Part shown: positions 36,417-61,699 of the stretch, in pieces | Numbering within the stretch: position 1 is the stretch's first letter | Layout of the letters: every line of letters begins with the position of its first letter | Origin: Tubulanus polymorphus | Lineage: Eukaryota; Nemertea; Palaeonemertea; Tubulaniformes; Tubulanidae | DNA length: 64,000 nucleotides | Direction: 5' to 3' | Assembly (NCBI RefSeq): GCF_964204645.1 | Contig: NC_134025.1 | Span: 4,531,001-4,595,000 of the forward strand | Notes under the pieces: generated by a model | What the model was told of the DNA's origin: nothing | What the model saw: only the letters and a program-made list of their open reading frames with translations | The model's database searches: none | Position numbers and translations under genes: made by a program

Positions 36417-36719
36417 TCACTATACTGGTATTGTAAAACTGACCTAAAAACCAACTAGAACAACTAAAACCATATAAAACACATGACTGAGGTCTTTATT
36501 TTGAGTAAACTTCGGTGCAGCAAAACTCCCAACGCGGACCGACTCCCATAAAATACGCAAAAATCTTTATAAGATTCTAAAAAAAAAAACTGAATTGAAA
36601 AGTTTACCCTTTGAAACGCTTGAAATATTGTCGACAATAGATATAACATGATACTGTAGATTTAGGAGCAATATTGGATGATTCCAAGCCGCCGTCTTAA
36701 ATGTGTTTTAATCATGAAA

Positions 36720-37185
36720 GGTCTTAAAGTGTCTAAACCGCCCGGAACCGGCCCCCAAGTTGAGCCTTGGGCCATGACCGTAAAATTCTTTCACGGATGA
36801 GATAAGGGTCACTTTAAGAATCAGATTTTATAAGATATCTATCTATCCGGAAATAATGAGATACATTATGAATGTGGAAGCGGTAAAGCGGAACGGCGGC
36901 GGTGGTGGTGCAGCGATCAGTCCAGTATCCTGATAGCGGAACTGCGGCTGTCAAGTCAAACTCGACCTCGCGGTGAATCTAGCCAAGGACGATGCTCTCC
37001 CTGATTGGTCACTGCATAAATGCCGGCCCGAATAGTCTCAAATCCGGTAACGCATCAATAGGTTTGAGAGCATTTGGCGCCCTGTCTAAAAATCGCCGCA
37101 CTCCATGCCCGCTGATCCGCCACCGTGTATGCTGTACTGATATGCTGTGCTAATGTATGCTGGGCTGAATGTTAAATCATGAACA
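36720..37185. other. GC-rich block upstream of the repeat array
   Basis: About 450 bp clearly richer in G+C and CpG than its surroundings, with a GGCGGCGGTGGTGGTG run near 36894-36911 and three TATGCTG words at 37128-37163. It could be a promoter (CpG-island-like) or the end of an element. No ORF recognised. Confidence 0.35.
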
Positions 37186-37210
37186 AGAAATTCGCCGTTT
37201 CTAACCTTTT

Positions 37211-37281
37211 CATGGTGAGAAAGTTTGATTTCAAAATCATTGATTGATTGTGTTTTATCCAAGCAGTAATATCTCATCTAG
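37211..37281 (+). repeat. direct repeat flanking the array, left copy
   Basis: CATGGTGAGAAAGTTTGATT to TATCCAAGCAGTAATATCTC closely matches 52868-52933 in the same orientation. Confidence 0.65.
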
Positions 37282-38691
37282 CCTAAGTTGTATAGTGAAT
37301 ACTTTCCAAACAATTTCATCATTTTCATAAATCGTTTTTTTATATTCCCAATTTATTTTCATTTTGCCGAGCCTAATAATTCATATTTTTACTTGCAGAG
37401 TTTGAACTGTATTTATTTCTCTGCTTCATGTTGTGACGTTAACATTCGATTGCAAGAAATTATCTACTATTTTCTTTATTTCCAGCCTCAGAAAGTTAGA
37501 AGTGTTTTTTATGGAGACCGTCTAACGAATCCATCGAATGCAAGATGAACCAAGTAGTCAACCCATCGTGACCTAGAACTACTCGAAGATGAACGACTAC
37601 TAGAAACAACTAGGGTCCAATGAACTATTAGAACTAAAAGAAGATGAACTCCTAGAAAATGAACTACTAATAGAACTACTGATACTACCTCCCAGTTGAT
37701 GATTGTGGCAATATAAAAAAGATAAGTTTGATTTATTTTTTTCTATTCCGGGAGGGATAGGAGAGAGTGGAGTGTCACATGGTTTACAAAACCCAAAAAT
37801 AAAATGTGTAAAAATACACATAAATGAGGTGTCGAAAAGCTTTTTTAACGCTTAATATCTAACTGAAAATGAAAAGAATAAAATCATCCAAATGACACAA
37901 AATCGTTAAACGATGTTCTGTGTCTGCACCGCACGAGTTCACAATCATTACTTCAGATAAGAAAACTTAAAGGAAAAGATCGTAAAACGACTTTTCTCTT
38001 TATCAGCCTCATAACAAAACCTCTATTGGGCCAAAATCTTGCTAACAAAATATGTTCAAAAAAAGATCTTGTCTCTGTTAGCTCTGTGCTGGAATTAATA
38101 TAGCGTATATTAGCTTTACTCATGTGTTAAGATAGATTTATGTGAACTATTGCTTCGTAAATTTGTAAGTAAATTCTTATTACATCTGCCAAGCAGTAAT
38201 TTCATATAGTCTTTAATCAGCAATAGTCTTGTAAATGTTGATTAGTTGTCATTGTAAGTTGTTTTGAATTCAGTATCTGTTCTGAAATGTGTAAGTGTTA
38301 AAAGGTGTATATTTTAGCCTAGTTGACTTGTTCTCTAGGTCTAATGCTGAACACGCTTGCAGCGTCTGAAAATAAGTTGTCTCGTTATAGTATTTTATCA
38401 GCTGTTTAGTCACTAGTTGAGTGGACGCTAGTTCACTTGGCTACGTGTACTAACTAATCATAGTCTCACTAGTATTAAAAAGTATTAAACATCATCTTTA
38501 TAAAGTTCTGTGATCAAGAAATAATGTGACTCAATATAGGATAGAATATACTATAGAATATTAGTTCTTACAGTTTGTTTGACTGAAAAGATTATATGAA
38601 GGTGTATAACCATTAGTTTGATCGCTATCCCCCCTAAATCCTACTAACAAAGTTCAAACTGTCTCTGTGAGCTCTGTTAAAGGTGTATTAT

Positions 38692-38729
38692 AGAAACTAG
38701 AAACTGTTTAAAACAGTTACTAGTTTCTC
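38692..38729. repeat. hairpin inside unit A
   Basis: AGAAACTAGAAACTGTTT is followed by AAAACAGTTACTAGTTTCT, an almost perfect inverted repeat. It is conserved in unit C (about 48980-49017) with one change. Confidence 0.6.
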
Positions 38730-38802
38730 ATAGTATTTTGTATAACGAAATCAAGCGCTGTTTAACCACTGACTAATTAGACTTAAGTTCTATTGGTTCA
38801 GT

Positions 38803-38835
38803 GGTTAGCACGCTTGTCTTGTGCCTTTACGTATA
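38803..38835 (+). repeat. tRNA-like A-box segment in unit A
   Basis: TGGTTCAGTGGTTAGCACGC has the D-arm/A-box pattern of a tRNA. The same sequence is in unit C (about 49081-49113). There is no matching B box or cloverleaf, so it is not an intact tRNA. Confidence 0.4.
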
Positions 38836-41512
38836 ATGAGATCATCTCAGCGAGCTCTGTTTTAATCATTTTATCATCAAAGTTCCTATGTCATAATTCC
38901 TTAATTTGAAATAAATTCTTAATGAAAAATTCTTTGAATTAATTTGTTAATTTTCTCTGTAGAAATGCGTATAATCTCGAGGTGTTCAGTCTTTTTTTAC
39001 TTGATATCGTAATCGCTTAAGTATTTGCAATATTCCAAATATTTTCTTACCAGTTTCTCAATCTCAATTTAAAAAAGAATCATCAAGATCTCTTTTAATG
39101 AAGCCTCATATTTTGATGTGGAGTTGATATTTAGTTTTACTTGTTTGAAAGTTCTGGATTCCCAGTAAGTGTTAGGCACATTAAGGTCAACTTAGAGAAT
39201 TTATATTGAAATCTTGATCTTCTGAAGAAGACCCATCATTCCATCTTAGTTAATGAAATCACTATTTTGCAAAAGATTCACAATCAATCCAATATTTTTA
39301 TTCATCAATATTTCAATATCGATGATGATCAAATGCTTTTAGAAGTGAAGTTAGAAAGTTGAATTGAATCAATTGAAGTTTCTCATTTTGTTCGTGTAAT
39401 TTCGAATGTAAATATAATCTTAGCCATTCGTTTAAATCTTGTGAAATTGATCGTAAAAGAAATCTTAATTTTGAAAGGAATCAATTGAATTTCCTTCTCA
39501 CTTTGATTATTATTCTGATGCAAAACTATTGTTTCTCAGAAAATCAAGCGAAGTTCTCACCTTCGAATTCATTGTTTTGAAATGAAATTCCGTAATTCAA
39601 TTCAATTTGAATTAAAGTCGAAAAAATTAATTTCGATATTGAATATTGATATTTATATAGATATGAATATCTAATAGAATAATTGACATTAAGTAGAAAT
39701 TGAATCCGCTTATTATCAATTTAATACAAATCTGCGCAACCTTAGAGCAGGATTCAGTCAAAATGGAAAAAATGTGTGGTTACTTAAAATATTCTAATTG
39801 ATTAAATTTGCACCAAACAATCAAAAATAGAAATCTCTTGAAATAAAGTGATTGCGAGTAAAAGCTTTGACACTTTGAAACTTCACTTCAAATTTAGCTA
39901 TCAGTGATACCTGTGTCAATAAAATGATTAGGAACTAGAAAAAAATGAAGTGCCTTTTTTGAAATAAATACAGGACTTGTCCGAGTACAAATCTAATGAT
40001 TTATCAGTTTCAATCTGGTCTAATTCAAGGCCACTAGTGTGAACTTATTTATGTAGCAGTTATTTTATGTAATGCTCTGCATAAATGGTTCGATTTCATT
40101 CAATTTACCTTCATTCATATTTTGAATATATTTTTACCGTTAATTTGTTTGTACTCGTATTAGACTGAAGTCCTTCAACATTTAATGGCACTTTTTCAAA
40201 ATATAGTAATTGTGACGTATATTTACAATTCATATTGATGATTCAATATCATTTATTTAAGGCTGTTTTATGTTTTTTGTTTAGAGTTCTATTAATAACA
40301 TTAGGTTAGAGATACAATAAATGTGTGGTGAGGTGTCGTTTTGGGACTTCTCCGAGTACAAATTTACAATTCAACATTTCACCATTCTTTATTTGTTAAG
40401 TCAGTTTAACTGGTCGAAAAGGACCACCGCGAACTCATTCATGTCTTATACATAATGGTTTGCCTCATTCAATTAAACACATGTTTCTATTTTCAGCGTG
40501 CTCGTATTAGATGAAAGTCCCGATTCATTTGTGGCACTCTCTCCACTCTCATTTGCATAATGACTATAATTGTTTTAATCACATGTATTCAATTCCATGT
40601 TATGTTCTGAATGTCATCAGTTGAAATGTGAAAGAGTTTCTCAAAATTATTTGGTGATTTCTATGTTTGTTTGGTGCTACTGCTACTACTTCTGCTGCTG
40701 CTGCGGCGCTACTCCTGCGCTACTCCTTAAGTTTGAATTCAGAAAACCGGACTAATAATATTTGAGAGATGAAACCTGCATGAATAATGGTTGTCGCTAT
40801 TTCATTTGAAACTTGTGATACAAAATTACTGTATCATTTTACATTGAGTTTTTCATTTTGATGGAAAAACTTCAATTATGTTTTTCTATTTGACGGAAAA
40901 AAATCCTTAGAATTTTTGTGTTTTTCTTATTGACTGAAAAACACGGTAATATATCGAGAATTTCAGAGCCAGTCCTCTGATAATATCATCCATGAAAATG
41001 ACCTTCCAGAGAAACTTTTGATATGAAATTCTAAATGTTTGTTGCTAATTACTGTGTCACTTCTATCAGTATTTTGATATATCGTCAATTAGCAGATATT
41101 GATATACCAAGTTTAGTCAGTGAATCTTTGTTACTAGAATCTCAATATCAAGAGTTTTGACAATATTTGAAGTGTTTTCTTATTGAAGGCTCGATCTTTG
41201 TTTGTAGAATCTCAATTTCAAAAAGAGTCATTTCAAGATCTCTTTCAATCAAAGCTTCACTTTTTGATGACAAGTTGATATTTTCTTATGATTTACTGAT
41301 ATTTAGTCCACACTGGTTTAAAAGTTCTTAATTTCCAGTAAAAGTGTTTTGTCACACATTTTGTGCTCTTGAAATGCATTAATAAGAAGTTGGTTTCATC
41401 CATGAGACTGTAATCACTTATCACAATGAGTTGTGCTTGACTTGACACTTGGCCACTTGTGGTAGCCACGCATTCAGCCTTATCAATCAGAGACAAAGAG
41501 TAGACCATTCCT

Positions 41513-41859
41513 GAGCAATAGGTGGCGCTACCAGCCTCTCAAACTCTCCCAAAATCATAATAACCTATAACTCTTAGATCTCAAAAACTCCCCTAAAACT
41601 AAAAATACATTAAACTTTGATCAGAGCATCGGGTAAGTGCGCAGAGACTATGGTGCCTGAGCAATAATAGGTGGCGCTACCAGCCTTCCTATAGCTCCCA
41701 ACTCTCATTCTCCTCCAGTGCTAAAGGTAGGATGGTGACGAGCAATAGGTGGCGTTACCAGTCGCCTAGAACTCGTAAATCACAATCCACCTTTTAGTAC
41801 TGTCTATTCCTATCAGAGCGCAGAGACTAAAAGGCCTGAGCAATAGGTGGCGTTACCAG
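41513..41859 (+). promoter_or_regulatory. CTCF-like motif cluster, unit A (4 sites)
   Basis: Four same-strand copies of GAGCAATAGGTGGCGYTACCAG at 41513, 41659 (with an extra ATA), 41740 and 41838. The centre AGGTGGCGC matches the bilaterian CTCF core AGRKGGCGC. Compared with B and C, one site and about 69 bp are missing after the first site. Confidence 0.55.
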
Positions 41860-42280
41860 TCTCTCTATGAGCTCCCAACTTAACAAACTCCAATAAGTCC
41901 TTCCGTCTAATCAAAGAAAATTGTCTAAAAATAGACAGCCCCGAAAAATGTCAAAAGAAAATCAAACTCCTCAGACAAAGAGGTTCAGTAGGATCTCAAT
42001 GTCTTTTTAAAGACACTGTGGACTTTGTACCAAATCAACGTTAACTGATCTTGTATCAGAGAAATCTACGTTAATGATCACTGTCTTAAATAGTGATTAA
42101 CTAACGCTACTAATACTAATCAATCGGGGGTTTATTGACAATGACTGATCAAATAATACAATTATTGCAATTGTAAACGACTGAGACGGATTTTAACTTC
42201 TCCATGTAAAATAATACGATGTTCGAACGGATTGTACGCCTCAAAAATATCATTTCTTTCCAGCTGAATGTTTCAAAATC

Positions 42281-43451
42281 AATATAGACGATAACTAATG
42301 TTGCGAGACCAACAGAAGATTCCATGGAGAATTAGCACAGTGATGTTCATAAATACTACCAGAAGAATCAGGCAGACGCATCGTGGAACCACCAGTTGAT
42401 CCACACTACCTCGCAGTTGATCCACACTACCTTGCAGTTGATCTACACTACGTCCCAGTTGATGATTGTCGCAATATAAAAAAGCTAAGTTTGATTTTTT
42501 TTCTATTCCGGGAGGGATAGGAGAGATTGGAGCGGCACAGGGTTTACAAAACCCAAAAATAGAACATGTTAAAATACACATAAATGAGGTGTTGAAAAGC
42601 TTTTTTAAAAGCTCATCTCAAAAAACTTAAATTTCTAACGCTTAATATCTAACTGAAAATTAAAAGAATAAAATCATCCAAATGACACAAAATCGTTAAA
42701 CGATGTTCTGTGTCTGCACCGCACGAGTTCACAATCATTACTTCAGATAAGAAAACTTAAAGGAAAAGATCGTAAAACGACTTTTCTCTTTATCAGCCTC
42801 GTAACAAAACCTCTATTGGACCAAAATTTTGCTAACAAAATACGTTCAAAAAAAGATCTTGTCTCTGTTAGCTCTGTGCTGGAATTAATATAGCGTATAT
42901 TAGCTTTACTCATGTGTTAAGATAGAAATATGCGAACTATTGCTTCGTAAATATGTAAGTAAATTCTTATTACATCTGCCAAGCAGTAATTTAATATAGT
43001 TTTTAATCAGTAATAGTCTTATAGATGGTAAGTGGTTGAGTGAGCTTGCCTTAAATCATTGTAAGTTGTTTTGAATTCAGTATCTGTTCTGAAATGTGTA
43101 AGTGTTAAAAGGTGTATATTTTGGCCGAGTTCACTTGTTCTCTAGGTCTAATGTTGAGCACGCTTGCAATGTCTGAAAATAAGTTGTCTCGTTATAGTAT
43201 TTTATCAGCTGTTTAGTCACTAGTTGAGTGGACGTGGACACTTGGCTACGTGTACTAACTAATCATAGTCTCACTAGTGTTAAAAAGTATCAAACATCAT
43301 CTTTATAAAGTTCTGTGATAGAGAAATCATGTGACTCAATATAGGATAGAATGTGTACTATAGAATATTAGTTCTTACAGTTTGTTTGACTGAAAAGATT
43401 ATATGAAGGTGTATAACCATTAGTTTGATTGCTAGATTCCCCCCCCCCCCC
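42281..43451 (+). repeat. macrosatellite unit B, left part
   Basis: Collinear with units A and C from AATATAGACGATAACTAATG to TAGTTTGATTGCTAGATTC, then ends in a run of C at 43440-43451, exactly where A and C continue CCTAAATCCTAC. Confidence 0.85.
42392..42462 (+). repeat. short tandem repeat in unit B
   Basis: About three and a half copies of a 21-bp word, CAGTTGATCCACACTACCTCG and variants. The same array is in unit C at about 47867-47937. Confidence 0.7.
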
Positions 43452-43515
43452 CGGGCACGGACCAAATTTGACTCGGGCCTGATCCGTGCCAATTTGGCAC
43501 GGGCCAAATCGTCTC
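43452..43515. repeat. inverted repeat at the left edge of the inserted segment
   Basis: GGGCACGGACCAAATT pairs in part with GATCCGTGCC and with AATTTGGCACGGGCC downstream. It looks like the end of a DNA element or a palindromic break point. Confidence 0.4.
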
Positions 43516-44084
43516 CATGTGACCACGGCTAAACGTTAGATGAACTCTTTTCTTGGGGTAAACAGGGTTGTCATAGGTTTGAACCCAGATATTACTGAAG
43601 TAACCAGGTTGCTTTTGAACAGCACATAGAGTATCAGCCCCGAATGATCACACAAACTGTGAAGTGAGAACTCTCGTATTCATGTGTATGGTTTGTGTGA
43701 AAGCGATGCGCGATTATTTCAGTAAAATATTCCAGAAAGATTCGCCTATATCTACATAAATATATATGAATAAAGAAAGAATTTAGGACTGAAGGCTTAA
43801 CATTACTTTATCTAATAAGATATGAGAATTAGATTCAATTTACTCCTCTCCGACCGATGTAGAACACATTTATTCAAATGTTCCACGATGGTTTATAAGC
43901 TGAACTGCATTCGACAGAGATGAAATAATGATAACTTGGTGAAACGTGACTTGATTGGTCGGATATACTCGGCAAGAGTCTGATGGAACAAGGGTTCAAT
44001 TTACTTCAATTTATCATTTAACAGATCGTTCAACATGATTCGTACAATAGAACGCTAATCATAGACTTATTACAGCGGCCGAAA

Positions 44085-45143
44085 ATGTTCGCTCATAGCG
44101 TCAATACGACAACTGGCCCGGTCCTGCAGCTCAACCTGTGTCAGAGAGTCCAAACTCGTCCGGTTCTAGTCAAATCAAAATTCAGTGTTCTAATGTACTT
44201 AGGATGTTATCTACCGGCGTCAGTATTAGGTATAACATTCAACGCCTTCACGTTGTTTGTTCTAAAACGGTTTAAATCTGATGTTTATTTTCTCATCAAA
44301 ATTCTCGCTGCAAACGATATTTTGTTTATGATCGCTACATTCATTCTGTATCCGCTGAGAGTTGCGTACATTTACGCCGTTTTGGGAGATATGTTATTAC
44401 GGGTGCACAGCGACTGGAATTTTGGGTGGATTTTTATTTCAATATCATTGCCGTTTTTCTATATATTTCAGATGACACGTAACTGGTGCACTGTACTGCT
44501 CAGTCTAGAGCGGTTAATCGTTGTATTGTTTCCAATAAAATCTCGTAGAATTCCCAGAAAGCTGATCTCACAGGGTGCAATGTTATTTATTTCTTTGTTG
44601 GGTTTTTGTGGTCATTTAGGTCAATTTATACCCTTCAAACATCTTGGATTCATGAATTGTCCTGACTATTGGCCTTATATCACAAGACGGCGTGGTAGAA
44701 ACATCCGGTACATTTTTAACATATATATCTGGAATTATTCAGTTTCTGAGCAGTCCTTTTTCTTCTATCTTACAGTCACATTTCCTCTGTTCATTTTGGT
44801 TTTCATCAATTTTATTCTTATTTCGGCGACTTTTTACCGTCGGGTTACTCGACGTTCACAGCTCGGTGTAACTGATGAATCGTCTAGAAGGGAAATGAGG
44901 ATTTTAAGGATGGTTTTATCAGTTGTTGCATTGTTTATTATTTGCGAAGGTTTGGGATTTGTGGATCGTAGAAGAAATTGGTTCCGCATAAAGGAAAACG
45001 GTTTTTCTTTTAGAATAATCGCATTGGCATTTTCTATTGTTGATTCGTCAGTAAATTTCATCATATATTGTGTGACAAATGACAAATTCAGAAAATCGTC
45101 CATTGACATTCTCAGTAAAGCTTGTTCTAGAAAAGGTTTTTGA
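44085..45143 (+). CDS. rhodopsin-family GPCR, FMRFamide-receptor-like, intronless
   Basis: 352-residue seven-transmembrane receptor in one exon. It has NTT glycosylation near the N-terminus, TM1 with LGITFNAFTLFVLKRF, TM2 with KILAANDILFMIATFILYPL, and an end of TM3 with NWCTVLLSLERLIVVLFPIK. The ERL replaces the usual D/ERY. TM4 begins near SQGAMLFISLLGFCGH, TM5 holds FPLFILVFINFILISATFYRR, and TM6 follows RREMRILRMVLSVVALFIIC. TM7 ends SSVNFIIYCVTNDKFRKS, where VNFIIY replaces NPxxY. The ND in TM2 and W-C spacing of TM3 suit peptide receptors of the FMRFamide/GPR139 group. The ligand is unknown. The gene stands alone in a 3.1 kb unique segment inside repeat unit B. An ATTAAA lies about 76 bp after the stop. 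Confidence 0.85.
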   Translation: MFAHSVNTTTGPVLQLNLCQRVQTRPVLVKSKFSVLMYLGCYLPASVLGITFNAFTLFVLKRFKSDVYFLIKILAANDILFMIATFILYPLRVAYIYAVLGDMLLRVHSDWNFGWIFISISLPFFYIFQMTRNWCTVLLSLERLIVVLFPIKSRRIPRKLISQGAMLFISLLGFCGHLGQFIPFKHLGFMNCPDYWPYITRRRGRNIRYIFNIYIWNYSVSEQSFFFYLTVTFPLFILVFINFILISATFYRRVTRRSQLGVTDESSRREMRILRMVLSVVALFIICEGLGFVDRRRNWFRIKENGFSFRIIALAFSIVDSSVNFIIYCVTNDKFRKSSIDILSKACSRKGF

Positions 45144-46529
45144 TGAATAGCTGGCGTGAGTTGAGATGATACAATTCTACAGTGGAACTCGCTCCGCATT
45201 TTCGAAGAAAAACCCGCAATTAAATTTTTAAGAAAATCTCGAAGAGAATCTTATACAGAGGTATCAAAACTTTCCGAACATTTCTCAAACTGGAAAAGAA
45301 AGGACAAAAAGGACGATGTTTTCACAACAGATGAATTCATAAAACTGACATCAAAACTGGGGTTAGTTTTTTTGCAAAACCGGTTAATCTGCATTCCTTC
45401 TCCGTTCGAATTGTCAGGTTGTAAAAATGCTACAGCAAATCACCCGCCCCAATAACAAAGCCTTGTAAGTTGATCAAGTGTTATCTTAATTCATTAGATC
45501 GGTAGTAAAATGTTACATCGACTCTACATAGTCTAAGGCTGGACATATTCGTAAACGAGAAATCGGTATGCCGTAGGTCGTGGTCAATATGATGCGTATA
45601 TTATTGGTATATGTTACCCGCCTAGTAAGGAGGGCTTCAAAAATAGTCTATAGACTCATTGATTGTTCCTCTCCACGGAAATCTTTAGTAAAAGGCGAAA
45701 GATTTAAACGTGGTTGAAGAGAAACCTGAGTACCTGTACCCTGAGTCCTCGAGGTATTTATACCCCGGCCTCGACCTCCATTGCCTTTAAACATGGTGTT
45801 TTACTGTCGAGTAATATAGATAGGTTCTGCTACAAAATCGGTCTTTTAGCCAGAAGTTTCCACAGATTTCACTCGAAATTTTATCCAAATTTGTATTACA
45901 CTTAATTAGATCAATCAACAAGCAATGATGCTACAGTTACAAATATATGATTATATTTATGATGATGGTATCTCGTTTTCCGTGAGCACTCGGTAAATTC
46001 CGTAAATCTCCGACTAGGTGGACGACTCACACTCGGCACACGCGAGTTGTGACACCTGCGACCCCCGCGTGAGCGCAACACTCCAGAGCGGCTTCTATCT
46101 TCAGGCGCGTTTCAAATCTATATTCTGTTTTAAAGGCCGACTTCGAGTATAAAAGGCCCATCATCTGTCAGACATGGCAGTATCTCTGAAGCCAGTCAAG
46201 AGCTCCAGCGGTTGAAACTGGTATTTCCCTGATATCTCCGTCCGATTTGGACCCTCCTTTTTGTCAGGGATTTGTGTAAACTCGTTATAGCACGAGAGGC
46301 CATGGACACTACCGCACTGAAATGCGCCAATTCGCTTTGTAGGAAAAATAGAAAAAAGCCCTCTAAAAAAATTTGACCGACTTGTACAAGTCCAACTGGA
46401 TCCACCACCCCCCCCCCCTCCGAGCTCAAGGAAACATTTTCAGACTTTATGAACTCTTATCACTGAAACACTCAGCCATGCCAACCTGTTACCTCGAGCC
46501 AATTGTCTTTGTAGGTGAAAATAGAAAAG
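45144..46529. other. unique DNA between GPCR and repeat unit B right part
   Basis: Includes a C-rich/CpG-containing stretch (46010-46110), a TATA-like TATAAAAG at about 46150, and a C12 run at 46408. Two similar words (CTTTGTAGGAAAAATAGAAAA near 46336 and CTTTGTAGGTGAAAATAGAAA near 46508) are about 170 bp apart. No gene recognised. Confidence 0.4.
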
Positions 46530-47755
46530 GGCACAAAACTTATGATGTGAAATTCTAAATGTTTGTTGCTAATTACTGTGTCACTTCTATCAGTATCTTG
46601 ATATATCGTCAATTAGCAGATATTATTATACCAAGTTTAGTCAGTGAATCTTTGTTACTAGAATCTCAATATCAAGAGCTTTGACAATATTTGAAGTGTT
46701 TTCTTATTGAAGGCTCGATCTTTGTTTTTAGAATCGCAATTTCAAAAAGAGTCATTTCAAGATCTCTTTCAATCAAAGCTTCACTTTTTGATGACAAGTT
46801 GGTTTCATCCATGAGACTGTAAACACTAATCACAGTGAGTTGTGCTTGACTTGACACTTGGCCACTTGTGGTAGCCACGCATTCAGCCTTATCAGAGACA
46901 AAGAGTAGACCATTCCTGAGCAATAGGTGGCGCTACCAGCCTCTCAAACTCTCCCAAAATCACTTAAACCATACAATCAGAGCTTTGGGTAAGTGTGCGG
47001 AGATGGTGTCCGAGCAATAGGTGGCGCAACCAGCCTTCCTATAACTCTTAGATCTCAAAAACTCCCCTAAAACTAAAAATACATTAAACTTTGATCAGAG
47101 CATCGGGTAAGTGCGCAGAGACTATGGAGCCTGAGCAATAATAGGTGGCGCTACCAGCCTTCCTATAGCTCCCAACTCTCATTCTCCTCCAGTGCTAAAG
47201 GTAGGATGGTGACGAGCAATAGGTGGCGTTACCAGTCGCCTAGAACTCGTAAATCACAATCCACCTTTTAGTACTGTCTATTCCTATCAGAGCGCAGAGA
47301 CTAAAGGGCCTGAGCAATAGGTGGCATTACCAGTCTCTCTATTAGCTCCCAACTTAACAAACTCCAATAAGTCCTTTTCCCGTCTAATCAAAGAAAATCG
47401 TCTGAAAATAGACAGCCCCGAAAAAATGTCAAAAGAAAATCAAACTCCTCAGACAAAGAGGTTCAGTAGGATCTCAATGTCTTTTTAAAGACACTGTGGA
47501 CTTTGTACCAAATCAACGTTAACTGATCTAGTAGAGAAATCTACGTTAATGATCACTGTCTTAAATAGTGATTAACTAACGCTACTAATACTAATCAATC
47601 GGGGGTTTATTGACAATGACTGATCAAATAATACAATTATTGCAATTGTAAACGACCGAGACGGATTTTAACTTCTCCATGTAAAATAATAAGATGTTCG
47701 AACGGATTGTACGCCTCAAAAATATCATTTCTTTCCAGCTGAATATTTCAAAATC
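46530..47755 (+). repeat. macrosatellite unit B, right part
   Basis: Resumes at CTTATGATGTGAAATTCTAA, equivalent to about 41014 in unit A and 51228 in unit C. About 2.4 kb of the unit (A 38640-41010) is absent from B. Confidence 0.85.
46918..47333 (+). promoter_or_regulatory. CTCF-like motif cluster, unit B (5 sites)
   Basis: Sites begin at 46918, 47012, 47133, 47214 and 47312, all on the plus strand. Spacing is 94, 121, 81 and 98 bp. The second has GCGCAACC and the fifth GGCATTACC, so these two are weaker matches. Confidence 0.55.
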
Positions 47756-50700
47756 AATATAGACGATAACTAATGTTGCGAGACCAACGGAAGATTCCAT
47801 GGAGAATAAGCACAGTGATGTTCATAAATACTACCAGAAGAATCAGGCAGACGCATCGTGGAACCACCAGTTGATCCACACTACCTCGCAGTTGATCCAC
47901 ACTACCTTGCAGTTGATCTACACTACGTCCCAGTTGATGATTGTCGCAATATAAAAAAAAGCTAAGTTTGATTTTTTTTCTATTCCGGGAGGGATAGGAG
48001 AGAGTGGAGCGCCACAGGGTTTACAAAACCCAAAAATAGAACATGTAAAAATACACATAAATGAGGTGTTGAAAAGCTTTTTTAAAAGCTCATCTAAAAA
48101 AACTTAAATTTCTAACGCCTAATATCTAACTGAAAATGAAAAGAATAAAATCATCCAAATGACACAAAATCGTTAAACGATGTTCTGTGTCTGCACCGCA
48201 CGAGTTCACAATCATTACTTCAGATAAGAAAACTTAAAGGAAAAGATCGTAAAACGACTTTTCTCTTTATCAGTCTCATAACAAAACCTCTATTGGGCCA
48301 AAATCTTGCTAACAAAATACGTTCAAAAAAAGATCTTGTCCCTGTTAGCTCTGTGCTGGAATTAATATAGCCTATATTAGTTTTACTCATGTGTTAAGAT
48401 AGAAATATGCGAACTATTGCTTCGTAAATATGTAAGTAAATTCTTATTACATCTGCCAAGCAGTAATTTAATATAGTTTTTAATCAGTAATAGTCTTATA
48501 AATGGTAAGTGGTTGAGTGAGCTTGCCTTAAATCATTGTAAGTTGTTTTGAATTCAGTATCTGTTCTGAAATGTGTAAGTGTTAAAAGTTGTATATTTTG
48601 GCCTAGTTGACTTGTTCTCTAGGTCTAATGTTGAGCACGCTTGCAATGTCTGAAAATAAGTTGTCTCGCTATAGTATTTCATAAGCTGTTTAGTCACTAG
48701 TTGAGTGGACGCTAGTTCACTTGGCTACGTGTACTAACTAATCATAGTCTCACTAGTATTAAAAAGTATCAAACATCATCTTTATAAAGTTCTGTGATAG
48801 AGAAATCATGTGACTCAATATAGGATAGAATGTACTATAGAATATTAGTTCTTACAGTTTGTTTGACTGAAAAGATTATATGAAGGTGTATAACCATTAG
48901 TTTGATCGCTAGATTCCCCCCCTAAATCCTACTAACAAAGTTCAAATTGTCTCTGTGAGCTCTGTTAAAGCTGTATTATAGAAACTAGAAACTGTTTAAA
49001 ACAGTTATTAGTTTCTCATAGTATTTTGTATAACGAAATCAAGCGCTGTTTAACCACTGACTAATTAGACTTAAGTTCTATTGGTTCAGTGGTTAGCACG
49101 CTTGTCTTGTGCCTCTACGTATAATGAGATCATCTCCGCAAGCTCTGTTTTATTTCATTTTATCATCAAAGTTCCTATGTCATAATTCCTTAATTTGAAA
49201 TAAATTCTTAATGAAAAATTCTTTGAATTAATTTGTTAATTTTCTCTGTAGAAATGCGTATAATCTCGAGGTGTTCAGTCTTTTTTTACTTGATATCGTA
49301 ATCGCTTAAGTATTTGCAATATTCCAAATATTTTCTTACCAGTTTCTCAATCTCAATTTAAAAAAGAATCATCAAGATCTCTTTTAATGAAGCCTCATAT
49401 TTTGATGTGGAGTTGATATTTAGTTTTACTTGTTTGAAAGTTCTGGATTCCCAGTAAGTGTTAGGCACATTAAGGTCAACTTAGAGAATTTATATTGAAA
49501 TCTTGATCTTCTGAAGAAGACTCATCATTCCATCTTAGTTAATGAAATCACTTTTTTGCAAAAGATTCACAATCAATCCAATATTTTTATACACCAATAT
49601 TTCAATATTGATGATGATCAAATGCTTTTAGAAGTGAAGTTAAAAAGTTGAATTGAATCAATTGAAGTTTCTCATTTTGTTCGTGTAATTTCGAATCTAA
49701 ATATAATCTTAGTCAGTGGTCTGAATCTTGTGAAAATTTATCGTAAAAGAATCGTCATTCCATCTTTGTTTCCGTGGTAGTTATATCTTAATTTTGAAAA
49801 GGAATCAATTGAATTTACTCCTCACTTTTTGATTATTTTTCTGATACAATACTATTGTTTCTCAGAAAATCAAGCGAATTTCTTACGTTCGAATTCACTG
49901 TTTTGAAATGAAATTCCATGAATGAATCAAATTAGATTACAGTTCGGAAAAATTTATTTCAATATTGAATATTGATATTTATGTTAATTGACATTAAGTA
50001 GAAATTTAAACTGGTTCTATCCATTTAATACAAAACTGCGCAACCTTGGAGCAGGATTCAGTCAAGATAAAAAATGTCTGATTATTTAGAATATTCTAAT
50101 TGATTACATTTGCACCAAACAATCAGAAATAGAAATCACTGAAATAAAAGTTATTGAGAGTGAAAGGTTTTTACGTTTTGACACTTCACTTCAAATTTAA
50201 CCTAATATATTTTTGCTGATAATAAATATCAGTGATACCAGTGTCAATATAAGAATGATTAGGAACTAGAAAAAAATTAAGTGCGTTTTTTGAAATAAAT
50301 ACAGGACTTGTCCGAGTACAATTCTAATGATTTATCAGTTTCAATCAGGTCTAATTCAAGGCCACTAGTGTGAACTAATTTATGTAGCAGTTATTTTATC
50401 TACTGCTCTGCATAAATGGTTCGATTTCATTCAATTTACCTTCATTCAAATTTTGCACATATTTTTACCGTTAATTTGTTTGTACTCGTATTGAAGTTCT
50501 GTTGAGTTCAATACTGACACCGGTTTAGAGATAAAATAATGAGTGGTGAGGTGCTGTTTTGGGACTTCTCCGAGTACAAATTTACAAGTCAATATTTCAC
50601 CATTCTTTAGAAGTTAAAGTCAGTTTAATTGGTCGAAAAGGACCACCGCGAACTCATTCATGTCTTATACATAATGGTTTGCCTCATTCAATTTAACGCA

Positions 50701-52578
50701 TGTTTCTGTTTTCAGCGTGCTCGTATTAGATGAATGTCCTGATTCATTTGTGGCACTCTCTCCACTCTCATTTGGATAATGATTATCATTGTTTTAATCA
50801 CATGTATTCAATTTACATGTATTGTATTCTGAATGTCATCAGTTTAAATGTGAAAGTGTTTCTCGATATTATTTGATGATTTCTATATTTGTTTGGTGCT
50901 ACTGCTACTGCTACTGCTGCAGCTTCAGCTGCTGCACCACTCCTTAAGTTTGAATTCAGAAAACCAGACTGATGATATTTGAGATGAAACCTGCATGAAT
51001 AATGGTTGTCGCTATTTCATCTATAATTCGAGATACAAAATTACGGGATCACTTTACATTGGGTTTTTATTTTGATGGAAAAACTTCAATTATGTTTTTA
51101 TATTTGATGGAAAAAAATCATTGCAAGTTTTGTGCTTTTCATATTGACTGAAAAACACTGTAGTATATCACTATGTTCAGAGCTAGTCCTCTGATAATAT
51201 CATCCCCGAGAATGAAGTTTAAGAGAAACTTATGATGTGAAATTCTAAATGTTTGTTGCTAATTACTGTGTCACTTCTATCAGTATTTTGATATATCGTC
51301 AATTAGATGATATTGATATATCAAGGGTAGTCCGTGAATCTTTGTTACTAGAATCTCAATATCAAGAGTTTTGACAATATTTGAAGTGTTTTCTTACTGA
51401 AGGCTCAATCTTTGTGGAATATCAATTTAAAAAAGAGTCATTTCAAGATCTCTTTCAATCAAGCTTCACTTTTTGATGACAAGTTGATATTTTCTTACGA
51501 TTTACTGATATTTAGTCCACATAGTTTAAAAGTTCTGGATTCCCAGTAAAAGTGTTCTGTCATATTTTGTGCCACTTGAAATGCATCAATAAGAAGTTGG
51601 TTTCATCCATGAGACTGTGTAATCAGTAATCACAATAGTTGTGCATGACTTAATAACTTGACATTTGGCCACTTGTGGTAGCCACGCATTCAGCCTTATC
51701 AGAGACAAAGAGGTGACCATTCCTGAGCAATAGGTGGTGCTTCCAGCCTCTCAAACTCTCCCAAAATCACTTAAACCATACAATCAGAGCTTTGGGTAAG
51801 TGGGCGGAGATGGTGTCCGAGCAATAGGTGGCGCTACCAGCCTTCCTATAGCTCTTAGATCTCAAAAACTCCCCTTAAACTAAAAAACATTAAACTTTGA
51901 TCAGAGCATCGGGTAAGTGCACAGAGACGATGGTGCCTGAGCAATTATAGGTGGCGCTACCAGCCTCCTATAGCTCCCAACTCTAAATCTCCTCCAGTGC
52001 TAAAGGTAGGATTGTGAAGAGCAATAGGTGGGGTTACCAGTCGCCTTAAACTCGTAAATCACAATCCACCTTTCAGTACTGTCTATTCCTATCAGAGCGC
52101 AGAGACTATAGTGCCTGAGCAATAGGTGACGTTACTAGTCTCGCTATTAGCTCCCAACTTAACAAACTCAATAAGTACTTCTCCCGCCTAATCAAGGAAA
52201 ATCGTCTAGAAATAGACAGCCCCGAAAAAAATCTGTATCTCCATATTGCACAAAAGAAAATCAAACTCCTCAGACAATGAGGTTCGGTAGGATCTCTATG
52301 TCTTTTTAAAGACACTGTGGACTTTGTGTCAAATCAACGTAACTGATCTTGTATCGGAGAAATCTACCTTAATGATCACTGTCTTAAATAGTAATTAACT
52401 AATGCTACTAATACTAATCATTCGGGGGTTTATTGACAATGACTGATCCAATAATACAATTATTGCAACTGTATACGACAGAGACAGAATTTTAACTTCT
52501 CCATGTAGAATTATAAGATGTTCGAACAGATTGTACGCCTCAAAAATATCATTTTTTTCCAGCTGAATATTTCAAAAT
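47756..52578 (+). repeat. macrosatellite unit C (about 4.8 kb)
   Basis: Full copy, the most complete of the three. It starts AATATAGACGATAACTAATG and ends CAGCTGAATATTTCAAAAT, after which sequence becomes unrelated. Small indels separate it from A throughout (for example 49720-49800 and 50200-50280). Confidence 0.85.
51725..52138 (+). promoter_or_regulatory. CTCF-like motif cluster, unit C (5 sites)
   Basis: Sites begin at 51725, 51819, 51939, 52019 and 52117, plus strand, spaced 94, 120, 80 and 98 bp. The second and third keep the full core GGTGGCGCTACCAG; the others have one or more changes. Confidence 0.55.
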
Positions 52579-52679
52579 GAAACCATTAGATGAAATGACC
52601 AAACAACCACTGATGACGAATTTCGCAACCGTTAAGACAACAGAACATCCCAAAATGTAACCAGCAGAGTTGCAGATAG

Positions 52680-52772
52680 TTAGCAGAGTTCCAGATGATA
52701 GGCAGAGTTCCAGATGATAGGCAGAGTTCCAGATGATAAGCAGAGTTCCAGATGATAAGCAGAGTTCCAGTG
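52680..52772 (+). repeat. 19-bp tandem repeat
   Basis: About five copies of GCAGAGTTCCAGATGATAR just beyond the end of unit C. Confidence 0.85.
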
Positions 52773-52867
52773 ATGTTCAGTAATGCCAGAATTCAGTTTA
52801 GGAGCAGCAGAGACAACAGTGTAACCACAATAAGATAGAAGGAAGGTTATCAGTTTCTTGTTAATTT

Positions 52868-52933
52868 CATGGTAAGAAATTTTGATTTCATAGTTAGGTT
52901 AAATGTTTTATCCAAGCAGTAATATCTCATCAA
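52868..52933 (+). repeat. direct repeat flanking the array, right copy
   Basis: CATGGTAAGAAATTTTGATT to TATCCAAGCAGTAATATCTC; matches 37211-37281. Confidence 0.65.
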
Positions 52934-52992
52934 ATTATACGGTACTTTTACAAACAATTTTATTGATTCATTTTGCATTGTCATTTTTACAG

Positions 52993-53532
52993 TTGAGAGT
53001 TTACTACCAGCAGAGAGTCTACTACCAACCAAGAGTCTACCACCAGCCGAGAGTCTTCTACAACCGAGAGTCTACTACCAGCCGAGAGTCTACTACCAGC
53101 CGAGAGTCTACTACAACCGAGAGTCTACTACAACCGAGAGTCCTACTACCAACGGAGAGTCTACTACCAGCCGAGCGTCTACTACAACCGAGAGTCTTAC
53201 TACCAACGGAGAGTCTACTACCAGCCGAGAGTCTTACTACCAGCCGAGAGTCTTACTACCAGCCGAGAGTCTTACTACCAGCCGAGAGTCTACTACCAGC
53301 CGAGAATCAACCCGCCGAGAGTCTACTACCAGCCGAGAATCTACTACCAGCCGAGAGTCTACTACCAGCCGAGAGTCTACTACCAGCCAAGAATCTACTA
53401 CCAGCCGAGAGTCTACTACCAGCCGAGAGTCTACTACCAGCCGAGAGTCTACTACCAGCCGAGAGTCTACTACCAGCCGAGAATCTACTACCAGCCGAGA
53501 GTCTACTACCAGCCGAGAGTCTACTACCAGCA
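52993..53532 (+). repeat. 18-bp minisatellite CTACTACCAGCCGAGAGT
   Basis: About 28 to 30 imperfect copies of 17-19 bp. Because indels shift the phase, it stays open in several frames (LLPAES on plus, VVDSRL on minus). The 229-codon plus-strand frame through it changes repeat reading twice, which is a minisatellite signature rather than a protein. No signal of a real gene around it. Confidence 0.9.
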
Positions 53533-54613
53533 ACAATCGCAGGAGCAGCAGAGTTTACGAACGATATCAGTGATCAGAGAACAATTGTTTAGTGTAGTGC
53601 GCATTTTTAAGAAGGGGCCCCGAAATTCACAATGAAAAAGATGCAGTATGATGCAAATGGAGTTGGTGTAAGGTAGGTGTGATTGTAATACGTGTATTTG
53701 TTGGGCATGTATGAATCTGTGTGTGAATCTGTGCGTAATGTATGAGTCCTATTTACATCATCTGGTATCTTTTTCTAGTGAAATCAAAATAAGTTTTCCT
53801 TTCATTCATAAAACATCTCCCCTTAAACTACTCAATTCACTTTCATCAATATTTTACTTGATCTTTAAGTGTTTTATTCGCATCCTAGGCACAAAGCGCA
53901 AAGCGTATTAACAAACCCTTTTATTTTTTTTAAACTAACATGCCCGGTGTTGGCAGCACAATAGGATGTGTATAATAAACGATTAAAGATCAAGTTTCCT
54001 CTAAACCCCCTCCCATTCACTTAATGTGAATATTCATTGTTTTGTGGATGATGGAAAATTAATGAAAAAAAATTTATAATCGTTTGGATTTGAAAAAAAA
54101 GATTGTAAAACTTAGTTTATAATGTACGTAGATAAAAATTAAGATAAAATTAAATGAAAACATAGAATATTAAACTTAGTCTTTCAAGTAGTAATAATAA
54201 TGTAGAAAAAAATTAATGAAATTAGTTCTAGATTGTTTACCTTGCGCTTTCCAGAGTGAACTTAGCATTGAGGGTAGTCTCTGGTTTTAGTGCGGAGGAT
54301 TTTAGTAGGATGGCACGCAGCATTCAGGAAACCGAGTGGTTTTAAGTCTCTTTGCGCGTGTCTCCATCTTAGTGTTATACCATACACTATTCGTTTTTGG
54401 AGTCAGTGCCTTTGACATGGACTTTAGTTTTCGCGCCCATGGTTTAATTAAACTACTTTCAATAGATAATTTAACATTTGACGATTCATAGAATACTGAT
54501 TTGGTAAATACCCTGCTGGAAATAGAAAGGAGCAGTTTCTTATTGACTGAGGATGTGTCGTCTGCAGTGTGCGAGTCACCGGTCAGTCAGGGACCTTTAC
54601 TGTGATGTTATTT

Positions 54614-54746
54614 CAGCATTCTATCAGCTCAACTACGCATAATCAATTAAACACTTAAAACTTAAATACACAATGAAATACAAACCACTGAAAACACAAA
54701 TTCAAAATTACAAAAAAACAACTACTTAAGATATGATAGAATGCTG
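54614..54746. repeat. palindromic element 1
   Basis: CAGCATTCTATCA at 54614-54626 and its exact reverse complement TGATAGAATGCTG at 54734-54746 enclose about 107 bp of A-rich sequence. Confidence 0.7.
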
Positions 54747-55129
54747 GATACTTCATGGAATGTAATCAAGTTTCATTAAGTTTTACTTGATAATGACTTC
54801 AATACAATCAAGTATCCTCTTATACTATTTCCAAAGTCAGGTATTTTGGTGTTTTTGGTATTCTATGAGTCGTGTTAATAAGAAATTAGTGTTTGTAGCT
54901 ACAATACTTTTTAACTTGCCGATTAAGATTGTTGTTACCGGAAACATTATGCCGGAAAATAAATTCCACTTATATTGTTAGAGAATTATCATTTTGAAAT
55001 TGATTGCATGTTAGAAATGTTTTTCCGATGTATGAAATACCGCTTTCTGTTGAAAATGGAAGAGCAGTTTCTGGCAACTGAGGAGGTATGGTTAGCAGTG
55101 ACTTGGATCTCTTCTTGTCATCGCTTACA

Positions 55130-55242
55130 AGCATTCTATGGACTCAATTAATGATAAACAAACACAAAACCAAATAAAATCAAACACATAATTAAAAAAA
55201 TCCCTTAACTTCAAAAATAAATGATTGATATCATAGAATGCT
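55130..55242. repeat. palindromic element 2
   Basis: AGCATTCTATG at 55130-55140 and CATAGAATGCT at 55232-55242 enclose about 91 bp. The upstream flank (GGAAGAGCAGTTTCTGGCAA) resembles that of element 1 (AAAGGAGCAGTTTCTTATTG), so both belong to one duplicated block of about 250 bp. Confidence 0.7.
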
Positions 55243-56747
55243 CGATTGATGATTTGATTAAGATAGTCTGCCATTGTTAATGGAGATCAAGAGGGTCATT
55301 TCTTGATCTTGAATTTCTCTGATCAGATTTGTGGTATTTCCTGGATCGAAGACATTGTTCGTATTGTATAGCTACACGATGTTCTAAGTAGTATTTGTGA
55401 ATCATAGTATCAAATGATACAATTTGTATAATGAAATCGAATAATCATATAATCAATTAAAGTAATTAAAGTATGTTGAAAATATGTTTGTTTAATATAA
55501 CGAGTTGTAAGTTGTAATTAGTTCTTATTAAGAGGGTCGGATGTTTGGGTGGAGTTCAGTATCAACACTTTTTTGTGTGGTGTAACAGTTAAGTTAAATT
55601 GAAAATAAATTAATAAGTTATTAAAGTTTAGTTGAAAATTCCATTTTGTGTTAGATGTTTTTGTAGTGTCGGATGTCTGGTGGATTTTATTATCAATACA
55701 TTTATTTTAATGATGTTATACTTTGTTAGTTGAATATACCTTATCATTTGTTGTTGATTAATTTGATTAGTCTTGATTTTATTATAGTGATTTATCGAGT
55801 GTCCGGCTCTGTTTTTTTGTTTTATATCGGTTTAAACCTGATGTTTTTTTTCAATAAAATCTTATTCAAGTGCTTGTAGTTGTTTCATATCGACCAGTTA
55901 GCCAGTAATTTGAGCAAGAGTCCATTCCTCACTGACCACGGATTAGATAGAATGTTTTCCAATTGAATCTCCTCAAGTGATCTCCTCAAGAGATGAACAC
56001 TGATGAGATTAATGCAAGATCAATCTGCAGCCTGGCGGCCCTCTAAGCCCGACTGACTGGAAGTGGATGTAGATCTGATCCGAAAATAATGTTTTCGTAA
56101 ATTGGAGTCTGTTGAGCGGACAAAAGTAATTCTCAGTAACAATTGAAGATGCAGTGCTGGTAACGACAGTGTTTCCGTTTCCATTCATGTTCATGACTTT
56201 TCACAGTGATTTCAAAAGAGTGATGATGGATAAAATCACGTGTTCAAGTGTGTCATTTTAACAGTGCTCATATCATTCTGACGTTCTCTTATTTTATGTA
56301 GTTGAAGTTTTGCAGCTATATGCAAACCAAGTAGTCTCTCAATTCGAGAATCTCCGGATGAGCCCAAATCAATCGAAGAAGTAGGTATTCAATGACAAAA
56401 GTTAAAGCTCGTTAGAACGCCACACTCGTTATACCGCCAGAATTTTGGCGTTATAATGAGTTTGACTACTTACATCGTGGGCACAGGGCTTTAATTATAT
56501 TCATAAACGTGCAGCCTTTAGGCTTGCACCGTGTCCCTATTCTTATACAACAAATTCCAATGAAAATACTATGTATTGATTAAAATCAATAATTTCGTTA
56601 GATTTATATCAATGAAAATAAGTATATTACATGTATTATCAGCATTATCATTATGCCTAAAAATTGAAAATATGTCTTCAATTATGATTTACAAGTAAAT
56701 GTGAGACACGCGGGAAGTTTCGGACATGATTCATCTCAACGATCATC

Positions 56748-59604: not shown

Positions 59605-61699
<2,095 letters not shown>

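What the first reader, a model, noticed from the sequence alone, without database searches (positions are those of the whole stretch)
41513..52138. Tandem noncoding units each carrying a cluster of CTCF-like sites (DXZ4-like macrosatellite)
Fourteen copies of GAGCAATAGGTGGCGYTACCAG occur in three clusters (41513, 41659, 41740, 41838; 46918, 47012, 47133, 47214, 47312; 51725, 51819, 51939, 52019, 52117). All are on one strand, with spacing kept at about 94, 120, 81 and 98 bp. The centre AGGTGGCGC(T) fits the CTCF core used across bilaterians, and AATAGGTGGCGCTA aligns with most fixed bases of the vertebrate motif. Mammalian DXZ4 is a tandem macrosatellite in which each unit holds a CTCF site and organises chromatin. 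A comparable array with several sites per unit in an invertebrate would be new to me. Sequence between the cores has diverged more than the cores, which suggests constraint. That CTCF binds is inference.
Basis: partly seen in the sequence, partly recalled or inferred. Interest (0 to 1): 0.85.

Follow-up and report, generated by a model that had tools for sequence, protein, structure and literature searches.

The report
Noncoding gene family with CTCF-like clusters
The repeated unit is not a satellite array but part of a family of noncoding, gene-like loci scattered over an animal genome, whose duplicated inner segments each carry a row of sites resembling those of the genome-folding protein CTCF; some copies travel inside a jumping gene.

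Summary
In detail: 14 motif copies lie in three one-strand clusters with kept spacing; shuffles give none. The DXZ4-like macrosatellite reading fails. The window copy is one of seven paralogous loci (18 units, 1-4 per locus, 97 clustered sites) sharing a promoter-like head with a splice donor, repeat-rich exon-like linkers and a 3' region. The anatomy resembles mammalian FIRRE more than DXZ4. Two copies (C5, C1b) sit inside a multicopy TIR transposon with 8-bp target duplications. The genome has a CTCF gene and strong CTCF-motif enrichment (1240 matches against 38 for a permuted control). Between two clades (75-79% identical) cores are 89% identical, spacers 78%, the rest 68%; within a clade there is no difference. 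Against CTCF: only 9 of 14 window sites reach score 9 with the human matrix; the best-conserved site scores poorly, and the constrained footprint runs past the CTCF motif. CTCF binding and transcription remain inference.

The parts
36950..37214 (+). Promoter-like conserved head (GTCAAACTCGACCTCGCGG..., CCAAT-type TGATTGG at about 37002) and first exon-like stretch ending ATG at 37214
   Evidence: alignment of 7 paralogues
37215..37485 (+). Intron-like stretch: donor ATG^GTGAGAA in 7 of 7 loci, acceptor TTTCCAG/TTTGCAG in 6 of 7 (deleted in C1b)
37486..37704 (+). Head exon-like segment with local repeats (GAACTACTACTAGAA type), stops in all frames
37705..42263 (+). Unit 1 (intron-like; acceptor-like end TTTCTTTCCAG, no GT donor at its start)
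41512..41859 (+). CTCF-like site cluster 1 (4 sites)
42264..42466 (+). Linker / mid exon-like segment with 21-bp repeats (CAGTTGATCCACACTACCTCG)
42467..47738 (+). Unit 2, middle replaced by foreign DNA
43446..46535 (.). Foreign segment in unit 2 (GPCR-like ORF 44085-45143 +; U5 snRNA 45616-45733 -)
46917..47333 (+). CTCF-like site cluster 2 (5 sites)
47739..47942 (+). Linker / mid exon-like segment with 21-bp repeats
47943..52562 (+). Unit 3
51724..52138 (+). CTCF-like site cluster 3 (5 sites)
52563..52871 (+). Tail exon-like segment with 18/19-bp repeats, donor-like ATG^GTAAGAA at 52872
52993..53531 (+). 18-bp tandem array GAGAGTCTACTACCAGCC; its reading frame shifts within the window array; 20-65 copies at each of the 5 clade-1 loci, 0 and 1 matches at C6 and C8
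53590..56033 (+). Conserved 3' region shared by the 7 loci (main pieces 71-92% identity), no ORF of 120 aa or more

Best explanation
The array is the inside of one member of a seven-locus family of noncoding, spliced-RNA-like loci. A conserved promoter-like head and splice signals would drive a transcript whose exons are quickly evolving local repeats. The 4.0-5.9 kb inner segment is present 1-4 times per locus by tandem duplication. Near its 3' end, about 400 bp upstream of each exon-like linker, it carries 4-8 same-strand CTCF-like sites. Proposed mechanism (inferred): CTCF binds the better sites of each cluster, and the stacked same-strand sites act as a strong directional anchor, insulator or enhancer-like element at each locus, as intronic R0 repeats do in mammalian FIRRE. 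Extra units add sites (5 at C5 and C1b, 14-15 at the window, C2 and C8, 20 at C3, 23 at C6). Two copies were moved inside a TIR transposon. Shown: family, shared modules, site clusters, between-clade constraint, transposon ends and target duplications, CTCF gene and motif enrichment. Not shown: transcription, splicing, CTCF binding, chromatin effect.
For: Seven loci found with the unit and again with the 3' region. Arrays begin and end at the same phase. Head donor conserved 7 of 7. Stops in all three frames in 21 of the 23 exon-like segments counted at six loci (two C6 linkers of about 100 bp have an open frame; C1b not counted). 97 sites in 18 clusters. 66 of 100 core matches score >=10 with the recalled human matrix on the gene strand and 0 on the other strand of the same stretches, against 26 on both strands of about 167 kb outside. 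Core 0.89, spacer 0.78, rest 0.68 identity between clades; the eight best mask shifts among -60 to +60 lie between -4 and +3. CTCF zinc-finger gene with open frames (read; assigned by best match, no tree). CTCF consensus 1240 matches against 38 (block-permuted) and 16 (reversed). The family variant GCAATAGRKGGCRS occurs 55 times outside the family (7 for the reversal, which is CpG-penalised). The tree groups the last units of W and C3 apart from the other units, which group by locus.
Against: Only 9 of the 14 window sites score >=9 with the human matrix, and 34 of 100 core matches score under 10. The third site, the best conserved of five (0.98), scores only 2-7; site 4 in clade 2 has lost the C at CTCF position 5 (5.6 or less). 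Position-wise conservation does not track CTCF information (r = 0.22 over 19 positions), and the constrained stretch continues into CCAGC beyond the motif. Other blocks of the unit are conserved as strongly (0.80-0.95), so the sites are not its only constrained part. The units have no GT donor at their start, so their being introns is not secured. No RNA or ChIP data.
Confidence: 0.45

Rival explanations
1. The clusters are bound by another sequence-specific protein (for example a lineage-specific zinc-finger factor) that reads ATAGGTGGCGYTACCAG, a near palindrome around GGTNGCGCNACC; the likeness to CTCF is partial coincidence.
For: Conserved footprint extends to CCAGC, fully kept A/T at CTCF positions 7-8, CTCF position 5 not kept at site 3 and at site 4 of clade 2, weak correlation with the CTCF matrix. 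Many zinc-finger genes are present, with a dense group on C8.
Against: Sites 1, 2 and 5 score 8-17 in the rows printed, mostly 10 or more; the variant is present outside the family at 55 places against 7 for the reversed control; scores >=10 in the clusters are on one strand only.
Confidence: 0.3
2. Selfish or passive cargo: the loci are transposon-borne or segmentally duplicated DNA without host function, and the clusters are a minisatellite with about 100-bp period.
For: C5 and C1b copies lie inside a multicopy TIR transposon with 8-bp duplications; unit number differs between loci; within clade 1 the cores are no better kept than the rest.
Against: Between clades, blocks of 0.8-0.95 identity alternate with blocks of 0.25-0.5 in the same unit (gaps counted as mismatch), which neutral decay does not readily give; no transposon ends were found in the fetched flanks of W, C2, C3, C6 and C8 (the 3' ends of the last four were not fetched).
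Confidence: 0.15
3. The conserved business is RNA: the unit is a structured intronic or unspliced RNA, and the CTCF-like repeats are incidental.
For: Many short conserved hairpins; some windows fold better than column-shuffled alignments (for example unit positions 1020-1140, z = -7.4 on the gene strand, 30 shuffles).
Against: Few double-sided compensatory changes (0-3 pairs in each of eight folds); best strand is mixed; no Rfam match over window 36600-42600 at E <= 1; short palindromes may equally be DNA sites.
Confidence: 0.12
4. A DXZ4-like macrosatellite, as proposed.
For: Kilobase units, largely non-coding, each with CTCF-like sites.
Against: 1-4 units per locus, 7 loci on 6 contigs, linkers and flanking modules, GC 0.30-0.42.
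Confidence: 0.03

Closest known systems
FIRRE/Firre lncRNA locus (mammals)
   Same: Noncoding locus; CTCF-binding intronic repeats (R0) a few hundred bp upstream of repeats (RRD) that lie in exons; DNA repeats and RNA repeats in one gene (PMC4820808, passages; PMC6985041, passages).
   Different: Seven dispersed loci instead of one X-linked locus; whole 4.0-5.9 kb segments duplicated; [quoted passage not shown] no RNA evidence; likeness of plan only, no homology claimed.
DXZ4 macrosatellite (primates)
   Same: Kilobase unit without obvious protein, with a CTCF site; conservation concentrated at functional parts (PMC3218863, passages).
   Different: DXZ4 is an uninterrupted, GC-rich array of 3-kb units on the X only; here at most 4 units, AT-rich, with linkers, seven loci.
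Tandem CTCF sites of Pcdh/Igh clusters
   Same: Rows of CTCF sites act as directional insulators (PMC7087399, abstract).
   Different: There roughly one or two sites per promoter or gene segment (recalled); here 4-8 sites within about 350-780 bp, repeated per unit.
Transposon capture of host DNA (Pack-MULE / hAT-type transduplication; recalled)
   Same: TIR element with 8-bp target duplication carrying the whole locus in C5 and C1b.
   Different: Cargo is a noncoding locus of about 9.7 kb in C5; superfamily not established.

Membership tests
DXZ4-like macrosatellite | Long uninterrupted head-to-tail array | tested here: not met
   1-4 units per locus in the assembly, separated by about 100-205 bp linkers
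DXZ4-like macrosatellite | GC-rich, CpG-rich unit | tested here: not met
   2-kb windows over 38001-54000 have GC 0.30-0.42; DXZ4 GC-rich, 62% in the lemur copy
DXZ4-like macrosatellite | Confined to one (X) chromosome | tested here: not met
   Seven loci on C1, C2, C3, C5, C6, C8
FIRRE-like locus (by analogy) | Transcribed, spliced lncRNA | not testable with these tools
   Only conserved splice-like signals, and stops in all frames of 21 of 23 exon-like segments
FIRRE-like locus (by analogy) | Intronic repeats bound by CTCF | not testable with these tools
   CTCF-like motifs only
FIRRE-like locus (by analogy) | Repeats in exons | tested here: inconclusive
   Linkers and tail hold 18-21 bp repeats, but exons are inferred
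CTCF binding site | Match to CTCF motif above chance | tested here: met
   Window has 24 hits >=9 against 4.5 simulated, 9 of them motif copies; 7 against 0.2 at >=16, 3 of the 7 in the clusters (matrix recalled). 5 of 14 copies stay below 9
CTCF binding site | Organism has CTCF and uses the motif | tested here: met
   CTCF-type zinc-finger gene at C3:3.43 Mb; 1240 against 38 motif matches. Use is inferred from enrichment
CTCF binding site | Constraint follows the CTCF motif | tested here: not met
   r = 0.22; C at position 5 absent at site 3 and at site 4 of clade 2; constraint extends beyond the motif
TIR DNA transposon (carrier of C5 and C1b copies) | Shared terminal sequences in many copies and target-site duplications | tested here: met
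   5' end at 38 and 3' end at 31 places by my count of the listed rows (40 candidates scored in each); 8-bp duplications in 5 of 6 copies examined
hAT / P / Merlin superfamily | Encoded transposase | not tested
   No autonomous copy was read

The most novel reading that the evidence does not exclude
An invertebrate counterpart of FIRRE evolved independently: a multi-chromosome family of noncoding RNA genes whose intronic CTCF arrays act as strong directional anchors, mostly near chromosome ends (5 of 7 within about 2 Mb of a contig end, binomial P about 0.003, cut-off chosen after looking and C6 borderline), able to be relocated by a DNA transposon and perhaps meeting in one nuclear hub.
Probability: 0.15. 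Interest if true: 0.88.

Novelty: new variant of a known kind. Interest (0 to 1): 0.6.

Why it matters
Whether CTCF works by oriented loop anchors outside vertebrates is open: echinoderm boundaries show no CTCF orientation pattern (PMC13317027, passages), and in an annelid most open regions with CTCF motifs have a single one, without clear direction (PMC7854359, passages). A natural series of seven loci with 5 to 23 same-strand CTCF-like sites, including two carried by a transposon into new places, would let one ask directly in one animal whether site number and orientation set boundary or loop strength.

Tried and rejected
Rejected: protein-coding gene (stops in all frames of 21 of 23 exon-like segments, frame of the 18-bp array not kept in the window; no Pfam family above its cut-off in the array ORF or in six further ORFs, one sub-threshold match at E 0.095). 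Rejected: the unit itself as a free mobile element (found only at the seven loci). Considered: a TATA-driven unit start (TATAAAAAAG in clade 1 is TACAAAAAAG in clade 2). Considered: structured RNA, left as a rival. Some z-scores are meaningless because the shuffled energies had almost no variance. The core counts are biased by the search pattern (<=4 substitutions) and cover the gene strand only; searches use columns defined in one reference unit (C5) instead. One search used 7 clade-1 and 3 clade-2 units, 11 and 6, of 18; W_2 (foreign middle) was in neither. Unit ends were set by hand, that of C8_3 (no clear end motif) roughly. Structure prediction, fold search, strand folding and fold_alignment were not called. 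Organism not identified: the COX1 search did not complete.
Full report
Observation. The motif is real and far above chance: 13 copies at <=3 mismatches, none in 100 shuffles, and 14 by core search, in clusters of 4, 5 and 5 on one strand. One site position of each cluster has a 3-base insertion before TAGG. The clusters recur because the surrounding 4.6-5.3 kb recurs three times: units 37705-42263, 42467-47738 and 47943-52562. The middle of unit 2 is foreign DNA with a rhodopsin-type GPCR ORF (Pfam 7tm_1, E 1.7e-7) and a U5 snRNA gene.

Family. In the 268-Mb genome (12 large contigs of 11.5-32 Mb) the unit occurs at seven places on six contigs: C1:4.57 Mb (window, W), C1:25.99 Mb (C1b), C2:30.99, C3:1.91, C5:1.73, C6:1.99 and C8:16.16 Mb (68 matched pieces). 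Unit numbers are 3, 1, 3, 4, 1, 3 and 3, 18 in all, with 97 clustered sites (14, 5, 15, 20, 5, 23 and 15; three further lone matches at C6 left out). A search with the 3' region alone (window 53590-55990) returns the same seven loci and two weak short matches elsewhere. Arrays start and end at the same phase, and homology continues on both sides. Two clades exist: W, C1b, C2, C3, C5 (91-97% between loci, leaving out the unit with the foreign middle) and C6, C8 (75-79% to the first). The tree puts the last units of W and C3 together and the other units of W and of C3 by locus, which suggests units were gained within loci.

Gene-like anatomy. Upstream of the array a block of about 260 bp, holding a CCAAT-type TGATTGG, is recognisable in both clades and ends in a splice donor ATG^GTGAGAA in 7 of 7 loci. 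An acceptor TTTCCAG/TTTGCAG follows in 6 of 7. Units end in an acceptor-like TTTCTTTCCAG or a variant of it. The tail segment has a donor-like ATG^GTAAGAA in all five clade-1 loci (none found at C6 or C8), and an acceptor-like TTTTACAG stands before the 18-bp array in the window. Linkers and tail hold short repeats (21-bp, 18-bp, 19-bp in the window), and 21 of 23 counted segments have stops in all frames. No Pfam family passed its cut-off in six ORFs tried. I infer a noncoding spliced transcript. A gap in this: the unit starts lack a GT donor (AAAAAG followed by CTAAGT or ATAAGT), so whether each unit is a plain intron is open.

CTCF. The genome has a CTCF-type gene at C3:3.43 Mb (69% and 53% identity of two neighbouring stretches to a human zinc-finger fragment, frames open; no tree made). 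The consensus CCASYAGRKGGCRS occurs 1240 times, against 16 for its reversal and 38 for a block permutation that keeps the optional CpG, 10 of these in one tandem array. AATAGGTGGCGYTA occurs 104 times, 72 in the family by my count of the 100 listed places, against 0 for the reversal. The family variant GCAATAGRKGGCRS occurs 91 times, 36 in the family and 55 elsewhere by my count, against 7 for the reversal, which is CpG-penalised. With the recalled matrix MA0139.1 the window has 24 hits >=9 (4.5 simulated), 9 of them motif copies, so 5 of the 14 copies stay below 9; it has 7 hits >=16 (0.2 simulated), 3 in the clusters and 4 outside. Of 100 core matches in the seven loci, 66 score >=10 on the gene strand (51 >=12, 28 >=15) and none on the other strand of the same stretches; 26 hits lie on both strands of about 167 kb outside.

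Constraint. In an alignment of units, between-clade identity is 0.894 at the five cores, 0.782 in spacers and 0.685 elsewhere (gap-rich columns out); the eight best mask shifts among -60..+60 lie between -4 and +3. Results against CTCF as the driver: site 3, the most conserved (0.98), scores 2-7; site 4 in clade 2 has T for the C at CTCF position 5; conservation correlates weakly with CTCF information (r = 0.22) and goes on past the motif (mean 0.91 over the next six bases, 0.81 in the remaining flank). Other blocks of the unit are as strongly kept, with many short hairpins but little covariation.

Carrier transposon. C5 and C1b share sequence up to points with inverted terminal likeness (CATCTAGGGCAATCTTAAGA... 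and GAGTGAAGTCAATCTTAAGA...); at the 3' side their alignment runs about 30 bp past the end shared by the other copies. The 5' end is found at 38 places and the 3' end at 31 by my count of the listed rows (71 and 69 matched pieces, 40 candidates scored in each). From the coordinates most pair 2-6 kb apart, five at 9-13 kb (C5, C1b, C7, C8, C11). Ends of six copies were read: 8-bp target duplications are present at C5 (GTCAAATC), C1b (GAAAGAAT, with 10 extra bases at the 3' end), C4:12.66, C10:1.90 and C8:10.81 Mb, and absent at C9:3.76 Mb. In C5 the cargo is about 9.7 kb of the 10.8-kb element; C2 homology starts at the cargo edge. The fetched flanks of the other five loci show no such ends, but the 3' ends of C2, C3, C6 and C8 were not fetched, so loss of ends there is not excluded.

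Known systems. DXZ4 is ruled out by copy number, composition and dispersal. FIRRE is the nearest analogue: its intronic R0 repeats recruit CTCF and RAD21, and RRD repeats, which lie in exons, follow a few hundred bp downstream (PMC4820808, passages; PMC6985041, passages). Here the cluster ends about 400 bp upstream of each linker in the window. This is likeness of plan, not kinship. Paper searches (listings only) showed no such invertebrate locus: no paper with all six terms; 12 of 17 listed; 10 of 14; 8 of 35; 7 of 9.

Verdict. CTCF as the binding protein is plausible (about 0.5), not shown.

Noticed in passing
window 43446-46535: Foreign segment inside unit 2 with an intact 352-aa rhodopsin-like GPCR ORF (44085-45143, +) and a full-length U5 snRNA match (45616-45733, -); a poly-C run stands at its left edge.
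   Followed up: partly
G000 C1:31733336-31734825 and C1:31231836-31232214: Other one-strand clusters of canonical CTCF consensus (6 hits in 1.5 kb, 4 hits in 0.4 kb) near the end of contig C1, outside this family (which lists only the first 100 places).
   Followed up: no
seven family loci: Five of seven loci lie within about 2 Mb of a contig end (binomial P about 0.003; cut-off chosen afterwards, C6 borderline).
   Followed up: partly
G000 C8:11.30-11.62 Mb and C10:3.17-3.36, 10.90-10.93 Mb: Dense groups of C2H2 zinc-finger matches; possible source of lineage-specific readers of the motif.
   Followed up: no
G000 C7:10165272-10177247, C8:10803483-10812916, C11:10328685-10339306: Copies of the carrier transposon 9-12 kb long where the family unit was not found; may be autonomous or carry other cargo.
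   Followed up: no
G000 C1:30935949-30940109: Four AATAGGTGGCGCTA sites on the minus strand in 4.2 kb outside the family.
   Followed up: no
window 59809-60123: A 315-bp (AT)n run, 99% matches.
   Followed up: no
C5 unit, about positions 2300-2450 and 2640-2830: Two pairs of GGACTTnTCCGAGTACAAA and CTCGTATTAGA...AGTCC arms per unit, largely conserved across clades (one is lost in W unit 3), unexplained.
   Followed up: partly
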